Shown one piece after another: positions 3,513 to 26,016 of a stretch of DNA of 34,568 bases. Positions within the stretch are counted from its first letter, which is position 1, and the number at the start of each line of letters is the position of its first letter. The notes under the pieces are model-generated. The model had not been told where the DNA came from. It did no database searches and saw only the letters and a program-made list of their open reading frames with translations. The position numbers and the translations under genes are program-made. The DNA is from a virus: positions 1 through 34,568 of IMG/VR virus record IMGVR_UViG_3300027899_000038. One strand, given 5' to 3'.

Positions 3513-3667
3513 AAATAAACAGCTTACTGATGGCTTTCCGCCTTTACCCCGATTCATCAAGCAAACTCGTATTATTGCGCGACTGGCTATTCAACCGACG
3601 ACGGTTTCACTCCAGAATGGCTTTAGACCGTCGATTTCTGGCCGGTAACTTCATGGCAGGCAGGTGA
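3509..3667 (+). CDS. Small Arg-rich protein, 52 aa, unknown
   Basis: A short gene of 52 codons that begins with an ATGA overlap on the primase stop. GGAGG at 3498-3502 sits at good spacing before its ATG, and the gene ends three bases before the next start. The product (MKINSLLMAFRLYPDSSSKL...) is basic, with an Arg cluster (FNRRRF) and no recognisable domain. The translational coupling on both sides and strong ribosome binding site make it more credible than the longer frame that crosses it. Function unknown. Confidence 0.7.
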   Translation: MKINSLLMAFRLYPDSSSKLVLLRDWLFNRRRFHSRMALDRRFLAGNFMAGR

Positions 3668-3670
3668 TTT

Positions 3671-4120
3671 ATGTCCGGTAAAGGCACCCTCGAATCCCTT
3701 GCCATTCTTGGCCTGGTCAAAACCATGTCGGATCAATTCGTCATCCAGACCCACATGACCCCAGCCCTTACCGAAATTTTGTCAGATATCGACCGCAACA
3801 TCGATGCCGCCTTTCTTTTGTGGCCCGAGCAATTGACCCACCGCGATATCCTGCGGATCAACTGCAAACTGGTGGCCCTGTCAGACATGATCCCCATGGA
3901 TCACGAAACAACCATAACGGTTTTCACATCATTTATCATGGCAACACTCGAAGACTTTTCTAAAAAACTGCACCCAATCAAAAAAACAGCAATCCAGCGG
4001 ATCATCTCGTCTGTCCTTCGCCTGCATCTGTATTTCATGGGCCATGAGTCAGACGAATACACAGACAACACCCACGGCGCAAAGGCCGCAGACGCATGGC
4101 AGGAGGCAACAATCATATGA
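3671..4120 (+). CDS. Hypothetical phage protein, 149 aa
   Basis: A 149-residue, mostly alpha-helical-looking protein without a recognisable motif. It follows the 52-aa gene by three bases, has GGCAGGTGA just before its start, and its stop overlaps the next ATG. Position in the early operon behind the primase suggests a role in replication or takeover, but nothing in the sequence identifies it. Confidence 0.75.
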   Translation: MSGKGTLESLAILGLVKTMSDQFVIQTHMTPALTEILSDIDRNIDAAFLLWPEQLTHRDILRINCKLVALSDMIPMDHETTITVFTSFIMATLEDFSKKLHPIKKTAIQRIISSVLRLHLYFMGHESDEYTDNTHGAKAADAWQEATII

Positions 4121-5892: not shown

Positions 5893-6530
5893 TGGATTGG
5901 TACTGCGAAAAACTTCACTGCATGATGTCACGATCCGCGTGCCAGAAGCGTCGGGCACTGGCCAACGACAAAAGACTTCGAACTGATGGCAACCAATACC
6001 GAAATGCAGGATGTGGAACCTGCACCCAAACGGAGGCAAACATGGAATCAATAGAAAACGATTTATCAAACACTCAAAAAGTGTGCAAAATCTGCGGAGA
6101 AACAAAAAATTTAAGCGAATTCGCCTTAAACGCCCGATCTTCAGACGGCATGCAGCACAAATGCAAAGACTGCCGAAAAAAACCAGACACCCCATGTAGG
6201 GGCGACCGGCCGGTCGCCCTAGTCCAGAATGAAAACAATATGGTTTTTGATCCCCACGAGGGCGACCGGCCGTTCGCCCCTACAATTCCCGATCCACAGA
6301 TGACCAACGCCTACGATGATCTGGATATCGATGCAACCATCAGCGCCGCCCGGGACGACCGAATCATCATCGCAATCGATTTTTCCGACTACCCAGACCT
6401 TCACTCGGCCCTGCAACTTCACGCATATTCCGAAATGCGCACCCCCGAGATGCAGGCCGCCTACATGCTGCGCGAACTTCTGGCCGAAATAAAGCCTATC
6501 ATCGAAAAAAAATGGGGTGAATGGGCGTAA
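5889..6530 (+). CDS. Zinc-ribbon early protein with in-frame REPIN insertion
   Basis: A 213-residue protein built of three parts. The N-terminal 100 residues hold several Cys pairs, including a C-x2-C...C-x2-C ribbon (CKICGETK...HKCKDC) of the type common in HNH-associated phage proteins. Residues 103-132 are the translation of a paired palindromic element (6196-6283), reading GDRPVA and GDRPFAP at its two arms. The rest is an acidic helical domain (about residues 133-213). The reading frame survives the insertion, which is 88 bases long with both boundaries in frame. Whether the inserted peptide is tolerated or the protein is damaged cannot be told. Confidence 0.7.
   Translation: MMDWYCEKLHCMMSRSACQKRRALANDKRLRTDGNQYRNAGCGTCTQTEANMESIENDLSNTQKVCKICGETKNLSEFALNARSSDGMQHKCKDCRKKPDTPCRGDRPVALVQNENNMVFDPHEGDRPFAPTIPDPQMTNAYDDLDIDATISAARDDRIIIAIDFSDYPDLHSALQLHAYSEMRTPEMQAAYMLRELLAEIKPIIEKKWGEWA
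6196..6283. repeat. REPIN-like paired palindrome, inside a gene (copy a)
   Basis: The left arm GTAGGGGCGACCGGCCGGTC and a right arm ending GCCCCTAC are inverted copies around a unique spacer of about 38 bases. Each arm is itself palindromic (GGGCGACCGGCCGGTCGCCC), and one base in the right arm differs (GGCCGTTCGCC). The spacer differs from those of the other copies. It lies inside the coding region 5889-6530. Confidence 0.9.
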
Positions 6531-7435: not shown

Positions 7436-7587
7436 TGCAGATTCTCTATTTCATACTTCTATTTTCGTATTTAACGCTTTACCCGGCGCACGTATCAAGC
7501 GACGCCTACGTAATATCAGACCCGACACCGATCATCCAGATCGAAAACAACATGATTTATATCCTCGATAACAAGGAGTTTAAATGA
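7435..7587 (+). CDS. Small secreted or membrane-anchored protein, 50 aa
   Basis: The product begins MQILYFILLFSYLTLYP and then has a short polar region ending NMIYILDNKEFK. The N-terminus is a good signal peptide or membrane anchor. The ATG overlaps the upstream small frame, and the stop overlaps the MazG-like start. An in-frame ATG at 7267 would give a 106-residue form with the hydrophobic segment internal. A membrane or envelope role, for example exclusion, is possible but unproven. Confidence 0.5.
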   Translation: MQILYFILLFSYLTLYPAHVSSDAYVISDPTPIIQIENNMIYILDNKEFK

Positions 7588-7970
7588 TCACAGACGACGA
7601 TATCACCCTAAACGATAACGACCAGCTTCACGAAATCTTCAGAGACAGATTTATCATAGCGTGGGAAGCCATGCAGTCCGAAGTCCACCACATCGCAACG
7701 AATCACGGCTGGTGGGAAGCAGAGCGTAACCCCGGAGAGAGCATAGCCCTCATGCACAGCGAGCTGTCCGAGGCCCTCGAAGGGCTTCGAAACGGCAACC
7801 CGCCTGATGATAAACTTCCGGATCACGACAGCGTTTCGGTAGAACTTGCCGACTGCGTTATCCGGATCATGGATTATGCTGAAGGAACCGGACTTGATAT
7901 CGCCGGCGCCCTGGCCGCAAAAATCGAGTATAACCGGCAGCGGGAATATCGGCATGGGAAGGAGTTTTGA
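7584..7970 (+). CDS. MazG-like NTP pyrophosphohydrolase
   Basis: A 128-residue all-alpha NTP pyrophosphohydrolase. It shows the family metal-binding pattern EXXE(12-28)EXXD: Glu60 and Glu63 (HSELSEAL) and, 23 residues later, Glu87 and Asp90 (VELADCVIRI). These enzymes hydrolyse NTPs or dNTPs to the monophosphate and are common in phages, where they may balance nucleotide pools or blunt the stringent response. AAGGAG at 7574-7579 serves the start. The next gene is 112 bases away, so the early operon probably ends here. Confidence 0.85.
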   Translation: MITDDDITLNDNDQLHEIFRDRFIIAWEAMQSEVHHIATNHGWWEAERNPGESIALMHSELSEALEGLRNGNPPDDKLPDHDSVSVELADCVIRIMDYAEGTGLDIAGALAAKIEYNRQREYRHGKEF

Positions 7971-7975
7971 TTTCA

Positions 7976-7998
7976 GTTGTTAAGGATTATTTAACAAC
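7976..7998. terminator. Hairpin after the MazG-like gene, possible terminator or operator
   Basis: GTTGTTAA (7976-7983) and TTAACAAC (7991-7998) form a perfect eight-base stem around a seven-base loop, six bases after the stop codon of the MazG-like gene. It lacks a following T-run, so intrinsic termination would be weak. A repressor-binding dyad is the alternative. Confidence 0.4.
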
Positions 7999-8030
7999 TC
8001 AAATCAGCAAGTCCACAATGACCATAAACA

Positions 8031-8065
8031 ATAGTGGTTAGTTCCAAAATGGAAACAACCACTAT
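8031..8065. promoter_or_regulatory. Long inverted repeat before the 8083 gene, possible operator or leader hairpin
   Basis: ATAGTGGTT (8031-8039) pairs with AACCACTAT (8057-8065), and inside it GTTCC pairs with GGAA-C with single-base bulges. The loop is about five bases. The hairpin ends five bases before the AAAGGAGAAAGAG ribosome binding site of the next gene. It could be an operator dyad or an RNA hairpin controlling translation. Confidence 0.45.
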
Positions 8066-8082
8066 CACAAAAGGAGAAAGAG

Positions 8083-8748
8083 ATGCAAAAGAACTACAGA
8101 GTAGAAATAACCGGAATGAACGATCTGTTACTGCATAAAGACAACATCATCTGGTCGGAACGTATAAAAAAATGGGCCAAAGACCCAACCAACAAGAAAA
8201 TCTCCGTTGCGGGTGATGATAGAACACCAGCGTGGTCATGGCTGGGATGTTGTTATGACGCCAACGGAATTATGACGATGGATTCCGATTGTATCATGTC
8301 GATGTTGCGGGAAGGCGGAAAGAAATGTGCTGCCCCTACCGGGAAAGGCAGCATGAAATCCCAAACACAGAGCGGAATTATCTGTGCAGAGATTGGCTGG
8401 CCGCTGATTATCAACGGTAAAACCATCAACTACAAAAAGATGCTCGATGTGCTTGCAAACGAACTTGATTTTGAAGTTCATGAGCAGTTCGCCAGAGATA
8501 ACGGGTTTGAACTGTTCGTCAAGAGGGCCAAAATCGGCAAGAACAAGCATGTCAGAGTCCGGCCAAGACTGTCTAAATGGAGCTGTTCGGGAACCTTGAT
8601 GGTTACGGATAGACAGATCACGGCTGAAATGCTTAAAAACATCCTGCTTTTCGGAGGAGCTTACTGCGGGTTAGGTGATTGGAGACCCGGAAGCCCTTCA
8701 CCCGGTCAGTTCGGAACGTTTATTGCGGATGTTAGCGAGATCAAGTGA
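8083..8748 (+). CDS. Unknown protein upstream of the pentamer array, 221 aa
   Basis: A 221-residue protein with a strong ribosome binding site (AAAGGAGAAAGAG). I do not recognise the family. It starts with a strand-like segment (YRVEITGMNDLLLHKDN), has a Gly/Lys/Ser-rich loop (APTGKGSMKSQTQSG) near residue 85, and ends with a distinctive Gly/Pro-rich motif (GLGDWRPGSPSPGQFGTF). Codon use is more AT-tolerant than in the early genes. It has its own upstream dyad and is followed directly by the GGTNN array, so it looks like the first gene of an independently acquired cassette placed between the two terminase genes. Confidence 0.75.
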   Translation: MQKNYRVEITGMNDLLLHKDNIIWSERIKKWAKDPTNKKISVAGDDRTPAWSWLGCCYDANGIMTMDSDCIMSMLREGGKKCAAPTGKGSMKSQTQSGIICAEIGWPLIINGKTINYKKMLDVLANELDFEVHEQFARDNGFELFVKRAKIGKNKHVRVRPRLSKWSCSGTLMVTDRQITAEMLKNILLFGGAYCGLGDWRPGSPSPGQFGTFIADVSEIK

Positions 8749-8761
8749 TATTATTTATATT

Positions 8762-9305
8762 GGTAAGGTCCGGTCGGGTACGGTCAGGTAAGGTGCGGTA
8801 AGGTAAGGTATGGTATGGTAAGGACTAAGGCGAGGCGAGGTGTGGTAAGGTGCGGTCAGGTGTGGTGTGGTAAGGTTTGGCGAGGTCTGGTAAGGTTTGG
8901 TCAGGTTTGGTAAGGACTAAGGTACGGTAAGGTGCGGTACGGTAAGGCCGGGTATGGTAAGGTAAGGACTAAGGCTCAGGTGCGGTAAGGTCAGGTGTGG
9001 TGGGGTGAGGTTCGGTGAGGTCTGGTTTGGTAAGGTAAGGACTAAGGCCAGGTTTGGTAAGGTACGGTAAGGTGCGGTAAGGTGAGGTAAGGTAAGGACT
9101 AAGGCGTGGTCAGGTGAGGTAAGGACTAAGGCCTGGTCGGGTGCGGTAGGGTGCGGTAGGGTGGGGTAAGGTAAGGTAAGGACTAAGGCTTGGTGTGGAG
9201 GGGTATGGTGTGGTCGGGTGAGGTTAGGTTTGGTAAGGTAAGGACTAAGGCCAGGTTTGGTAAGGTACGGTGCGGTAAGGTAAGGTGCGGTAAGGTAAGG
9301 ACCAA
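8762..9305. repeat. GGTNN pentanucleotide array in nine blocks punctuated by GGACTAA
   Basis: The region parses without remainder into 96 five-base words, nearly all GGTNN (one six-base unit, GGCTCA, at 8973), in nine blocks of 12, 17, 9, 13, 10, 4, 10, 11 and 10 words. Every block is closed by the seven-base mark GGACTAA (GGACCAA at the last), at 8822, 8914, 8966, 9039, 9096, 9123, 9180, 9242 and 9299. The word before each mark is always GGTAA, and the word after it is nearly always GGC-type. The NN pair takes almost every value. TAA within GGTAA closes all frames on the plus strand, so it is non-coding there. GG at five-base spacing is also the pattern of two-tier G-quadruplexes. Confidence 0.95.
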
Positions 9306-9341
9306 GGCAATAACCAAAATAAAATATTATATGGAGGCGAA

Positions 9342-9791
9342 ATGACAAGGCCAGAAAATCTGTTGTTTCCAAGTCGGATGACAACAAAGATCGATGTGGA
9401 TATGATTATCCAAAAAATCGGAATACCAAAAGAAGGAGACAAGATCACATATGAAGTGATTGAGGATTTGATCGGGTTAAAAAAGAATTCTTCACGGTGG
9501 AGGACAGTTGTGTATACATGGCGCAAAAAACTCTTTGTTGAAAACAATCTCGTGTTGAAATCACTGATGAACAAAGGGTTTTTAGTGTTAAATCCATCTG
9601 AGCGGGTATCATATGCAGACAGGAAAATCGTGTGCGGCAGAAATATAATTTTAAAGGCTGTCAATATCGTTCAGGCTACAGATATGGACAATTTGGATGA
9701 AGAAACGAAAACAAAATATAATTTTATAACATCAATTCCAAACAGATTGAGATTGGCTACACTGGTAGAATCAAAAGAAATGCCATATTGA
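9342..9791 (+). CDS. Unknown protein downstream of the pentamer array, 149 aa
   Basis: It has a strong ribosome binding site (GGAGG at 9333-9337) between the last array mark and the ATG. The 149-residue product is basic in its middle and could contain a winged-helix-like DNA-binding region (YEVIEDLIGLKKNSS, then RWRTVVYTWRKKLFVENN). The codon use is clearly more AT-rich than in the terminase that follows. I do not recognise the family. Its position directly behind the array makes it a candidate array-binding protein, which is inference. Confidence 0.7.
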   Translation: MTRPENLLFPSRMTTKIDVDMIIQKIGIPKEGDKITYEVIEDLIGLKKNSSRWRTVVYTWRKKLFVENNLVLKSLMNKGFLVLNPSERVSYADRKIVCGRNIILKAVNIVQATDMDNLDEETKTKYNFITSIPNRLRLATLVESKEMPY

Positions 9792-9836: not shown

Positions 9837-11780
9837 ATGCAACTCCAACTAATCAACACCCCCAAACACCCACCCCTCCCCATCACCCCTGCATGGCTCC
9901 CCCCCGCCATGCAGGCCCCAGGCACACGCCTAAAAATCCGCTTTTCCGCAGCAGACCGTCACGCCATGCGGCGCAAAAAACAAATCCCCGTCTCCGAATG
10001 GGCGGAACGATACCGGTTCATCCCAAAAGACGCAGCCCTCCCCGGCCCCTGGCGAAACTCAACCGTGCCCTACATGGCAGGCGTTATGGATGCCGCCATG
10101 TTCCCGTCTGTCCAGCAGATCATCCTCTGCTGGCCCCCGCAATGCGGAAAATCAGACGGCGTCAACACAGTCATCGGCTACCTTACCGACCGCCGGCCCG
10201 GAAACGTCCTCTATGTTTTCCCAGATGAGCTCACCGCCCGGGAAAACAACCGCGACCGCATCACCCCCATGTTTCAAGACAGCGACCAACTCAAAAAATA
10301 TTTCACCGGATATGCAGACGACACAGCCTCTCTTTGCCTGCGTCTCAAACACGCAAAAATCTACATGGCATGGGCAAACTCAGCCTCCCGTATGGCCAAT
10401 AAACCCCTCCCCTACGTCGTCCTGGACGAAGAAGACAAATACCCATCCACCCCAAACGCCAAAGAAGCCTCACCAGCCGACCTGGCCAAAAAGAGAACCC
10501 GAACATTTTCTCACATGAGAAAAGTCTTCCGCATGTCAACGCCAACAGTTGAGTCCGGTGCAATCTGGAAAGCCCTCACAGAAGAAGCCGAAGTCATCTT
10601 TGATTATTGGGTACGCTGCCCTGCCTGCAACTCGCTCCAACAGATGGTATTCAGCCAGATCAAATGGCCGGATACCGAAAGAGACCCCCGGGCCATCGAA
10701 ACAGAGAAACTGGCGAAATACCACTGCATATCCTGCCCGGATATCTGGGACGACAGCCGGCGCAACATGGCAGTCCGGGCCGGAGAATGGCGAGACCGCG
10801 AAAAGGGCCTGTCCGTCGCCGCCGTTCTAAATAGCAGAAGACCAACGACCATCGGTTTCCACCTGCGATCCTACGTCTCCCGGTTTGTGTCGCTCTCCGA
10901 ATCAGCCGCAGCCTTCCTATGGGGCCTAAAAGATCGAAACAAACACAAAGATTTTTGCAACTCCCACGAGGCCGAACCATGGCGGGAATACTCTCACGAG
11001 AAAACAGACGACGCCATTCTGGCTCTCAGAGACGACAGACCCATGGGCCGGGTGCCTGGCGGAGGAGTTGTCTCCGGACTGGTTGCCGGCATCGACACCC
11101 AGGACGACGGCTTTTTTTACGAGATCCGCGCCTTTGGCTTTGGCCTCGAACAGGATTCATGGCAGATAAGATCAGGATTTGTAACATCCCTCGAAGCCCT
11201 CAAAACAGTGCTGTGGTCAGACGCCTACCTTGACCCGGACGGAAAACGCTACATGGTCTCCCGATCCCTTATAGACGCCATGGGCCACCGAACTTCAGAA
11301 GTTTACGACTTCTGCCGCATTAACCCCGGCCGGATATTCCCCACCAAAGGCGAGCGCACCATGCGTCAGCCCCACGCCTGGAGCCGGATCGATTTCTATC
11401 CCGGCACCAATAAACCCATCCCATCTGGCCTGCAACTGGTGCGCGTGCATACCACCCACTTTAAAAATCAACTCGCGTCCATGCTCGAAGTCCCCTTTGC
11501 AGACCCTGGATCCTGGAAATACTGCGCCGACACCACAATCGACTGGGCAACCCAGATGACGGCTGAATACATCGCAGAAACCGGCTTCTGGGAAACAAAA
11601 GGCAACCGCCCAAATCACGCCTGGGACTGCTCAGTCCTGGCCCTTTGCGCCGCCGACATGGCCGGATTCCGGTTTTTGCAGCCCTCCCCCAAAAAACGAG
11701 ACCCACAACACACCCGAAACGAAGACACAGAACGCGGCGGATGGATCGAGCGCAGCGGCAGCGCATGGATCAACAGATAA
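9837..11780 (+). CDS. Phage terminase large subunit, GpA family
   Basis: A 647-residue packaging motor and nuclease, close in length to lambda gpA (641). The ATPase has a P-loop-like PPQCGKSD at residues 100-107 and a Walker B VVLDEED at 194-200. A zinc-ribbon insertion follows (CPACN...YHCISC, near residues 260-300). The C-terminal nuclease region shows an acidic strand (GIDTQDDG) and a conserved late motif (NHAWDCSVLAL). A GpA-type terminase implies cohesive-end-like cutting. The start has AAAGG a few bases upstream; later in-frame Met codons at residues 25 and 44 are alternatives. The compact GC-rich codon use contrasts with the gene just before it. Confidence 0.93.
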   Translation: MQLQLINTPKHPPLPITPAWLPPAMQAPGTRLKIRFSAADRHAMRRKKQIPVSEWAERYRFIPKDAALPGPWRNSTVPYMAGVMDAAMFPSVQQIILCWPPQCGKSDGVNTVIGYLTDRRPGNVLYVFPDELTARENNRDRITPMFQDSDQLKKYFTGYADDTASLCLRLKHAKIYMAWANSASRMANKPLPYVVLDEEDKYPSTPNAKEASPADLAKKRTRTFSHMRKVFRMSTPTVESGAIWKALTEEAEVIFDYWVRCPACNSLQQMVFSQIKWPDTERDPRAIETEKLAKYHCISCPDIWDDSRRNMAVRAGEWRDREKGLSVAAVLNSRRPTTIGFHLRSYVSRFVSLSESAAAFLWGLKDRNKHKDFCNSHEAEPWREYSHEKTDDAILALRDDRPMGRVPGGGVVSGLVAGIDTQDDGFFYEIRAFGFGLEQDSWQIRSGFVTSLEALKTVLWSDAYLDPDGKRYMVSRSLIDAMGHRTSEVYDFCRINPGRIFPTKGERTMRQPHAWSRIDFYPGTNKPIPSGLQLVRVHTTHFKNQLASMLEVPFADPGSWKYCADTTIDWATQMTAEYIAETGFWETKGNRPNHAWDCSVLALCAADMAGFRFLQPSPKKRDPQHTRNEDTERGGWIERSGSAWINR

Positions 11781-11783
11781 CCC

Positions 11784-11869
11784 GTAGGGGCGACCGGCCG
11801 GTCGCCCTCGATCTTGCGCATAATGTAGTTTATGGCGTGCTACCAGGGCGACCCGCCGGTCGCCCCTAC
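11784..11869. repeat. REPIN-like paired palindrome, subfamily A (copy b)
   Basis: Arms beginning GTAGGGGCGACCGG and ending CGCCCCTAC flank a spacer beginning TCGATCTTGCGCATAAT. It is 86 bases long and shares its spacer with copies c and d. The right arm has a CCGCC variant at its centre. It starts three bases after the terminase stop codon. Confidence 0.93.
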
Positions 11870-12141: not shown

Positions 12142-12227
12142 GTAGGGGCGACCGGCCGGTCGCCCTCGATCTTGCACATAATCTCGTTTATGGCGTGCTA
12201 CCAGGGCGACCGGCCGGTCGCCCCTAC
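12142..12227. repeat. REPIN-like paired palindrome, subfamily A (copy c)
   Basis: 86 bases with perfect GGGCGACCGGCCGGTCGCCC arms and a spacer nearly identical to copies b and d. It lies between the HTH gene and the methyltransferase, in the same orientation as its neighbours. Confidence 0.95.
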
Positions 12228-13532: not shown

Positions 13533-13614
13533 GGGCGACCGGCCGGTCGCCCTCGATCTTGCACACAATCTCGTTTATGGCGTGCTACCAGGGCGACCGG
13601 CCGGTCGCCCCTAC
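13529..13614. repeat. REPIN-like paired palindrome, subfamily A (copy d)
   Basis: 86 bases with perfect arms and the subfamily A spacer (TCGATCTTGCACACAATCTC...). Its GTAG overlaps and provides the TAG stop of the methyltransferase, so the insertion may have set the current C-terminus. Confidence 0.95.
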
Positions 13615-13643: not shown

Positions 13644-14387
13644 ATGAACCTTATCACCATCAATTCAAAAAACCTTAAACACCTACCCCACAACGCCCGA
13701 AAACTAAAAACCGCCAGAGGCATCGAAAAACTCTCAGAACAAATCCGAATCCACGGCTTCCAAAACCCCCTAAACGTCTGGTTAGACCCAGAAGACGGCA
13801 AATACGCTATCATCGCCGGAAACCACCGTTTCAAAGCAGGTTTTTCAATCGGCATGCGCGACTTCCCTTGTGTCATCTACGAGGGCACCAAAGACCAGGC
13901 ATACGCCAGATCAATATCCGATAACAAAATGTCAGAACTCACCACATGGGATTATTCCGAATTCTGCGTTGCAATAAAAAATCTCGAAATAACCCCGATA
14001 GACTGCGGTTTCGATAAAATCAAATTCTTTGAAATATCAGAATTCAACGAAAAAGAAGAATTAAAAGAAAGAATCAATAACGAAAAAGAATATCATTACA
14101 AACAATTAGATATCGACAAACTCCTTGCAAAATACAGCCAGAAACTGATGCAGATATGGCAGGACGACCCGGAAAGCATGACCAAATCCACATTGGTATG
14201 CCTGCCAAACGATTCCGGCACAAAAGCCATCATGATCATGACAGACCCCAGCACCAGCGACATCATCACAGAAATTAGGCGCTATGCAGAAGCCGGAGAA
14301 AAATCCCCCCTTGAAAAATTAACCCAATCAATGGTCAATTATGAAAAAATCGTTGCAGATTATCGATCAAGCCATCAGCCAACATAA
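13644..14387 (+). CDS. ParB/Srx-like protein, IbrB-type partner
   Basis: A 247-residue protein with an N-terminal ParB-like nuclease/sulfiredoxin fold: LPHNARKLKT near residue 13, LSEQIRIHGF near 35, and a signature GNHRFKAG near 68. The rest is helical and charged with no recognisable domain. Its 3' end overlaps the PP-loop gene by 47 bases, indicating coupled expression. ParB-like plus PAPS-reductase-like pairs are known as IbrB/IbrA in E. coli and occur in phages and islands; their biochemical role is not settled. DNA modification or regulation is inferred. Confidence 0.75.
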   Translation: MNLITINSKNLKHLPHNARKLKTARGIEKLSEQIRIHGFQNPLNVWLDPEDGKYAIIAGNHRFKAGFSIGMRDFPCVIYEGTKDQAYARSISDNKMSELTTWDYSEFCVAIKNLEITPIDCGFDKIKFFEISEFNEKEELKERINNEKEYHYKQLDIDKLLAKYSQKLMQIWQDDPESMTKSTLVCLPNDSGTKAIMIMTDPSTSDIITEIRRYAEAGEKSPLEKLTQSMVNYEKIVADYRSSHQPT

Positions 14388-22722: not shown

Positions 22723-22828
22723 GTAGGGGCGACCGGCCGGTCGCCCTCGTGCAGATTGCACAATATTTGGAACATGGTAGCGCCAATGGGTACATGGCCA
22801 TCGAGGGCGACCGGCCGGTCGCCCCTAC
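22723..22828. repeat. REPIN-like paired palindrome, subfamily B (copy f)
   Basis: 106 bases with perfect arms and a longer spacer beginning TCGTGCAGATTGCACAATAT. It shares the TCGTGCAGAYTGCAC start with copies g and h. It lies between the major capsid and the first head-tail joining gene. Confidence 0.93.
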
Positions 22829-25317: not shown

Positions 25318-25425
25318 GTAGGGGCGACCGGCCGGTCGCCCTCGTGCAGACTGCACATTATTTCAAATACAATTTAACACCATTGGTCGCCTGACCATCG
25401 AGGGCGACCCGCCGGTCGCCCCTAC
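25318..25425. repeat. REPIN-like paired palindrome, subfamily B (copy g)
   Basis: 108 bases; the right arm has a CCGCC centre variant. The spacer (TCGTGCAGACTGCACATTAT...) is the reverse complement of the spacer of copy h, so g and h are in opposite orientation around the chaperone gene. Confidence 0.93.
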
Positions 25426-25907: not shown

Positions 25908-26016
25908 GTAGGGGCGACCGGCCGGTCGCCCTCGATGGCCAGGCAACCAATGGTGTTGAAATTGTATTCGAAATAATGTGCAGTCTGCACGAGGGCGACC
26001 GGCCGGTCTCCCCTAC
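25908..26016. repeat. REPIN-like paired palindrome, subfamily B inverted (copy h)
   Basis: 109 bases; the right arm has a GTCTCCCC base change. The spacer is the reverse complement of copy g with scattered differences. It starts two bases after the stop codon of the frameshift product and ends 40 bases before the tape measure start. Confidence 0.93.

What the first reader, a model, noticed from the sequence alone, without database searches (positions are those of the whole stretch)
8031..9791. Gene-array-gene cassette inserted between the two terminase subunits
The unknown 221-aa gene, the array and the unknown 149-aa gene form one unit with its own upstream dyad, strong ribosome binding sites and more AT-rich codon use. 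It separates the terminase small-subunit candidate from the large subunit, which are normally adjacent. That is the signature of a moron or defence/counter-defence island. The flanking proteins have no family I recognise.
Basis: partly seen in the sequence, partly recalled or inferred. Interest (0 to 1): 0.75.

Follow-up and report, generated by a model that had tools for sequence, protein, structure and literature searches.

The report
VIPR guide-RNA system in a phage
A phage carries a compact RNA-guided DNA-binding system of the recently described VIPR kind (a CRISPR-Cas7-like protein plus an array of five-base repeats whose two variable bases spell targets), and in sister phages the same genomic slot holds either a different VIPR with another repeat code or an unrelated guide system, TIGR-Tas.

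Summary
The cassette is real. The 221-aa protein belongs to the family of Vipr of phage SUSP1 (phrog_4652, E 8e-18; PDB 36pp "SUSP1 Vipr protein", E 8.5e-10) and its predicted fold is a Cas7/RAMP. The array is NNGGY pentamers in nine tracts of 5-18, separated by GGACT/GGACC. The 149-aa protein is weakly in the family of SUSP1 Vap1 (phrog_5926) and is modelled as a winged-helix protein. Together they are a VIPR system (bioRxiv 2026, PMC13142463), most likely an RNA-guided repressor of competing phages. A blind IMG/VR scan for the pentamer array alone gave 80 loci; 56 carry a Vipr-family gene, 54 of them on the array's strand.

The "terminase small subunit" is a MazG-like pyrophosphatase, so the cassette does not split the terminase. 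Only the 149-aa gene is AT-rich. The slot between the pyrophosphatase and TerL is exchangeable: sister phage L002 holds a divergent VIPR with a GACNN code, and L003/L008 hold a TIGR-Tas system; more distant relatives have neither.

No natural target was found, so targeting and the 1-nt-skip rule remain untested here.

The parts
7968..8006 (.). inverted repeat (16-nt arms) in the MazG-vipr intergenic region; role unknown, possibly operator or mRNA hairpin
   Evidence: folds at -14.8 kcal/mol
8031..8065 (.). inverted repeat upstream of vipr; no T-run, so not a classical terminator; possibly operator or 5' hairpin
   Evidence: folds at -16.0 kcal/mol
8083..8748 (+). vipr: RAMP/Cas7-like guide-RNA-binding protein, 221 aa
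   Evidence: phrog_4652 E 7.9e-18, same family as SUSP1 Vipr, PDB 36pp E 8.5e-10, AF2 pLDDT 91 with Cas7-type fold
8760..9308 (+). vrRNA array: NNGGY pentamers in nine tracts (5-18 pentamers) plus a terminal stub, separators GGACT/GGACC
8760..8821 (+). guide unit 1
8827..8913 (+). guide unit 2 (longest, 17 consecutive pentamers)
8919..8965 (+). guide unit 3
8971..9038 (+). guide unit 4 (contains one 6-nt step)
9044..9095 (+). guide unit 5
9101..9122 (+). guide unit 6 (short, 5 pentamers; possibly a remnant)
9128..9179 (+). guide unit 7
9185..9241 (+). guide unit 8
9247..9298 (+). guide unit 9 (NN series close to unit 5)
9299..9308 (+). last separator GGACCAAGGC, end of the array
9342..9791 (+). 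vap: Vap1-like accessory protein, 149 aa, predicted winged helix plus helical hairpin
   Evidence: phrog_5926 E 2.6e-6, the family of SUSP1 Vap1; model pLDDT 87, pTM 0.71; weak matches, largely to winged-helix DNA-binding proteins
7584..7970 (+). left border of the slot: MazG-like pyrophosphatase (not a terminase small subunit)
   Evidence: phrog_3301 E 1.8e-34
9837..11780 (+). right border of the slot: terminase large subunit, gpA type
   Evidence: PF05876 E 1.1e-61, PF20454 E 6.9e-48

Best explanation
The cassette 8083-9791 is a VIPR system. Shown here: a Vipr-family protein with a predicted Cas7/RAMP fold, an array of NNGGY pentamers on the same strand, and a Vap1-like protein, forming one unit in a slot whose content is exchanged between sister phages. 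Inferred from the VIPR preprint (PMC13142463): the array is transcribed and processed into about nine guide RNAs; Vipr subunits polymerise along each RNA and hold the constant GGY; the variable NN pairs base-pair with DNA in which one base is skipped after every two; the bound complex represses a gene of a competing phage, satellite or prophage, helped by the DNA-binding Vap. Own inference: the GGACT separators mark the 3' ends of the guides and take the place of the structured tail of SUSP1 vrRNAs.
For: phrog_4652 is shared with SUSP1 Vipr, pair E 1e-16, PDB 36pp E 8.5e-10; Cas7-type fold; phrog_5926 shared with SUSP1 Vap1; pentamer array far beyond chance; blind array scan: 56 of 80 loci hold a Vipr gene, 54 on the same strand and 54 within 705 bases, 18 control loci hold none; other loci with the order vipr-array-vap; tract lengths of 5-18 pentamers against 9-16 published.
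Against: No target found for units 2, 4 and 8 and no excess at any skip length in related phages. No SUSP1-type structured tail; one unit has only 5 pentamers. The Vap match is weak (E 2.6e-6). No expression data.
Confidence: 0.93

Rival explanations
1. The same proteins and array serve the phage's own regulation (an RNA-guided repressor of its own or its host's genes, for example lysis/lysogeny or late-gene timing) and are not a weapon against other phages.
For: No competing-phage target was found; the preprint shows that VIPR can act as a plain transcriptional repressor.
Against: No self-target in the window at any skip length; the cassette is replaced by other systems in sister phages, which is unlike a core regulator; published natural targets are mostly satellites and prophages.
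Confidence: 0.12
2. A decayed or inactive VIPR whose array has lost its tails and no longer makes guides.
For: Tails absent, unit 6 short, one frame slip in unit 4, repeated AA in the NN positions.
Against: Both genes are intact with good ribosome binding sites; GGY is kept while NN varies (3.5 of 4 bits); compact arrays with 1-11-nt separators recur in many Vipr loci.
Confidence: 0.06
3. An ordinary slippage-prone tandem repeat that happens to lie between two unrelated genes.
For: Simple tandem repeats arise easily; no expression data.
Against: Constant GGY beside highly diverse NN, and a Vipr-family gene in 56 of 80 loci chosen by the array alone.
Confidence: 0.02

Closest known systems
VIPR of Escherichia phage SUSP1 (vipr, vap1 and four vrRNAs; PMC13142463; KT454805)
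   Same: Same Vipr family (phrog_4652) and same Vap family (phrog_5926), GGY/NN pentamer guides, phage-encoded.
   Different: 26% identity; array lies between vipr and vap, not on both sides of the gene pair; nine compact units with 5-nt separators and no structured tail.
Other phage VIPR loci with compact arrays (L036, L078, L094 and L076-type arrays in IMG/VR)
   Same: 8-14 pentamers per tract, short phase-breaking separators; L036 uses AAGGACTTTAGGGC, close to AAGGACTAAGGC here.
   Different: Different separators and divergent Viprs (about 15-26% identity; closest Vipr overall is L054, 47%).
Class 1 CRISPR-Cas Cas7 proteins (type VII Cas7, Csm3)
   Same: Predicted fold (VIA-align Z 10-11 over about 160 residues).
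   Different: No other cas gene, no CRISPR repeats or spacers; about 10% identity.
TIGR-Tas (PMC12045711), found in the same slot of L003/L008
   Same: Same genomic slot; guide array beside its protein gene; phage-encoded.
   Different: Unrelated Nop/IS110-type protein and a different array format (9-nt spacers between 9- and 10-nt repeats).

Membership tests
VIPR | Vipr protein, a RAMP homologue | tested here: met
   phrog_4652 shared with SUSP1 Vipr; 36pp E 8.5e-10; Cas7-type fold
VIPR | array of alternating GGY/NN motifs, about 9-16 repeats per guide | tested here: met
   nine tracts of 5-18 NNGGY pentamers; eight of nine have 10 or more
VIPR | vap accessory gene | tested here: met
   phrog_5926 E 2.6e-6, the family of SUSP1 Vap1; weak by pairwise blastp (E 0.003)
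VIPR | vrRNA is expressed and bound by Vipr | not testable with these tools
   needs RNA sequencing
VIPR | DNA recognition by the 1-nt skip rule | tested here: inconclusive
   no target found in the collections searched
SUSP1-like VIPR subclade | structured 3' tail on each vrRNA | tested here: not met
   units are separated by GGACT only; so filed as VIPR with a Vap1-like protein, not as a member of the SUSP1 subclade
Class 1 CRISPR-Cas | CRISPR array and several cas genes | tested here: not met
   no other cas-like gene in the cassette; array is 5-nt periodic
Terminase small subunit (gene 7584-7970) | membership of a small-terminase family | tested here: not met
   best matches are MazG-like pyrophosphatases (phrog_3301 E 1.8e-34)
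TIGR-Tas (loci L003/L008 only) | Tas protein with a Nop-type domain, and two alternating 8-12-nt repeats with 9-nt spacers | tested here: met
   304-aa protein hits 9mty (IS116/IS110/IS902 C-terminal domain protein, E 1.5e-18) and TasH 21kl (E 9.6e-7); 16 units of 9+9+9+10 nt

The most novel reading that the evidence does not exclude
The site between the pyrophosphatase gene and TerL in this phage lineage is a port for exchangeable RNA-guided weapons: a GGY-code VIPR, a GAC-code VIPR and a TIGR-Tas replace one another there, which implies that VIPR and TIGR-Tas do the same job for the phage although protein and guide format are unrelated.
Probability: 0.5. Interest if true: 0.75.

Novelty: new member of a known kind. 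Interest (0 to 1): 0.6.

Why it matters
VIPR was described only in 2026, and its authors argue that it is older than CRISPR. Sister phages with VIPR and TIGR-Tas in one slot suggest that TIGR-Tas, whose natural role is open, also serves conflict between phages, and give a natural set of phages to test it. The compact array with 5-nt separators is a minimal guide format, and GACNN and GCANN arrays beside related Viprs would let the relation between protein and constant triplet be mapped.

Tried and rejected
Single-protein search of IMG/VR with the 221-aa protein: no relative. The sequence GGTAAGGTAAGGACTAAGG was not found in other viral contigs. Targets by the 1-nt skip rule: unit 2 with 9 pairs in viral contigs and 10 pairs in genome contigs gave 1 and 2 hits that do not extend and are near the chance rate; units 4 and 8 gave none in viral contigs. 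Skips 0-3 against the window and related phages: no excess over shuffled NN order. TIGR spacers of L003 against the same phages: no excess. Rfam and PADLOC: nothing relevant. CRISPR, ordinary tandem repeat and split-terminase readings were rejected as given above. A search of host genomes was not possible because the record is viral. The supplement of the VIPR paper, with the type definitions, could not be read, so the type (II-like by its Vap) is provisional.

Full report
Observation. The two genes and the array are present as described. The array runs from 8760 to 9308 and consists of NNGGY pentamers. Up to 17 follow in phase; dinucleotide shuffles of the array reach 4 and the rest of the window 2. 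Nine tracts of 5-18 pentamers and a terminal stub are separated by GGACT (GGACC at the end) in the context AAGGACTAAGGY, which breaks the pentamer phase. The 81 interior NN have an entropy of 3.5 of 4 bits, with AA in excess.

Corrections to the finding. The gene 7584-7970 is a MazG-like pyrophosphatase (phrog_3301, E 1.8e-34), not a terminase small subunit. Only the 149-aa gene is AT-rich (GC 0.36); the 221-aa gene has 0.47 against 0.49 for the window.

What the proteins are. The 221-aa protein has a single PHROG match, phrog_4652 (E 7.9e-18). Vipr of phage SUSP1 is in the same family (E 1.4e-96); blastp of the two gives E 1e-16, and the solved chain 36pp, named SUSP1 Vipr protein, matches at 8.5e-10. 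AlphaFold2 with 52 sequences gives pLDDT 91 and pTM 0.88. The 49 Foldseek matches at E <= 0.001 are subunits of CRISPR effector complexes, and the second look with VIA-align puts Cas7-type subunits (type VII Cas7, Csm3) on top at Z 10-11. The 149-aa protein's best match is phrog_5926 (E 2.6e-6), the family of SUSP1 Vap1 (E 1.1e-75). Its model is a winged helix followed by a helical hairpin; PDB matches are weak (best E 0.047) but many are winged-helix DNA-binding proteins.

What it works like. The VIPR preprint (PMC13142463) describes Vipr, Vap and vrRNAs made of 9-16 YNNGG repeats. The NN pairs recognise DNA with one skipped base, no PAM is needed, and the complex represses transcription; natural targets are mostly satellites and prophages. 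The sequence-level features are met here. Of the 80 loci obtained, 56 have a Vipr-family ORF: 54 on the same strand as the array and 54 within 705 bases of it. Of the 24 without, 14 have a single array match and several of the others lie near an end of the stretch held. Eighteen loci not chosen by array (176 kb) have none. Distant Viprs in Pseudomonas, Gordonia and Vibrio phages and an Azospirillum plasmid also sit beside pentamer arrays; in the Vibrio phage the constant triplet is GCA.

Architecture. The order vipr-array-vap also occurs in L098, L050 and L082. In some loci long tails separate the guides (gaps of about 40-65 nt); in others, as in the window, the separators are 1-11 nt. L036 uses AAGGACTTTAGGGC, close to the window's AAGGACTAAGGC. 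The compact format is therefore recurrent and not the decay of one locus. That the separators are guide ends is inference.

The slot. TerL relatives were collected twice. In more distant members (for example L004, L007, L009) the 249-aa gene p249 lies almost directly before TerL; in L030 and L031 small unrelated genes lie between. In the closest sisters the slot after the pyrophosphatase gene is filled differently. L002 (TerL 78% identical) has a 185-aa protein of phrog_4652 (E 1.4e-11), about 30 pentamers of the form GACNN, and a protein of phrog_5926 (E 2.1e-5): a second, divergent VIPR with another constant triplet. The preprint mentions related consensus motifs, so a changed triplet is not new in itself. 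L003 and L008, identical in the slot, have a 304-aa protein that hits 9mty (IS116/IS110/IS902 C-terminal domain protein, E 1.5e-18) and TasH (E 9.6e-7), beside 16 units of 37 nt made of a 9-nt spacer, TnAAAATCA, a 9-nt spacer and TGCAAGACCA. This fits the TIGR definition of two alternating 8-12-nt repeats with 9-nt spacers, and the UG...CCA repeat ends (PMC12045711). Three cases are few, so the 'port' reading is a hypothesis.

Targets. None was found. For unit 2 a 9-pair pattern had one hit in viral contigs and a 10-pair pattern two in genomes; none extends convincingly beyond the searched pairs. Patterns of units 4 and 8 had none. Local scoring against the window and related phages gave no excess at skips 0-3. 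The collection scans need exact matches and the host is unknown, so this does not argue against targeting. TG is absent among the 81 interior NN while CA occurs 8 times, which would suit NN read as the first two codon bases in sense; the signal is weak.

Verdict. A VIPR system, with confidence; its type (II-like, by its Vap) is provisional. It is a new member of a known kind. The exchange of VIPR and TIGR-Tas in one slot was not found in the papers searched, a limited search.

Noticed in passing
L002:3047-4293 (IMGVR_UViG_3300020048_000562): A second, divergent VIPR in the same slot of a sister phage: 185-aa Vipr, about 30 GACNN pentamers (3612-3770) without separators, Vap1-like protein.
   Followed up: partly
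L003:7346-8895 (IMGVR_UViG_3300044991_001880) and L008: A TIGR-Tas system (304-aa Nop/IS110-type protein, 16 units of 37 nt) in the same slot of other sister phages.
   Followed up: partly
L022:1285-2444 (Vibrio phage 1.266.O): A Vipr relative flanked by arrays with the constant triplet GCA (GCANN), another variant of the code.
   Followed up: no
6201-6278, 11789-11864, 12147-12222, 13534-13609, 22728-22823, 25323-25420, 25913-26011 and 19498: Fifteen copies of the palindrome GGCGACCGGCCGGTCGCC (up to 2 mismatches; none expected), mostly in pairs 58-81 bases apart between genes: an interspersed paired-palindrome repeat, perhaps a small mobile element.
   Followed up: partly
16933-17043 and 17567-17678: A near-identical duplicated intergenic segment of about 110 bases (94-99% identity), followed at 17662-17712 by a short tandem repeat with an 11-base unit.
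   Followed up: partly
13644-15219: By eye from the translations, a ParB-like gene (247 aa) overlaps a PAPS-reductase-like gene (292 aa).
   Followed up: no
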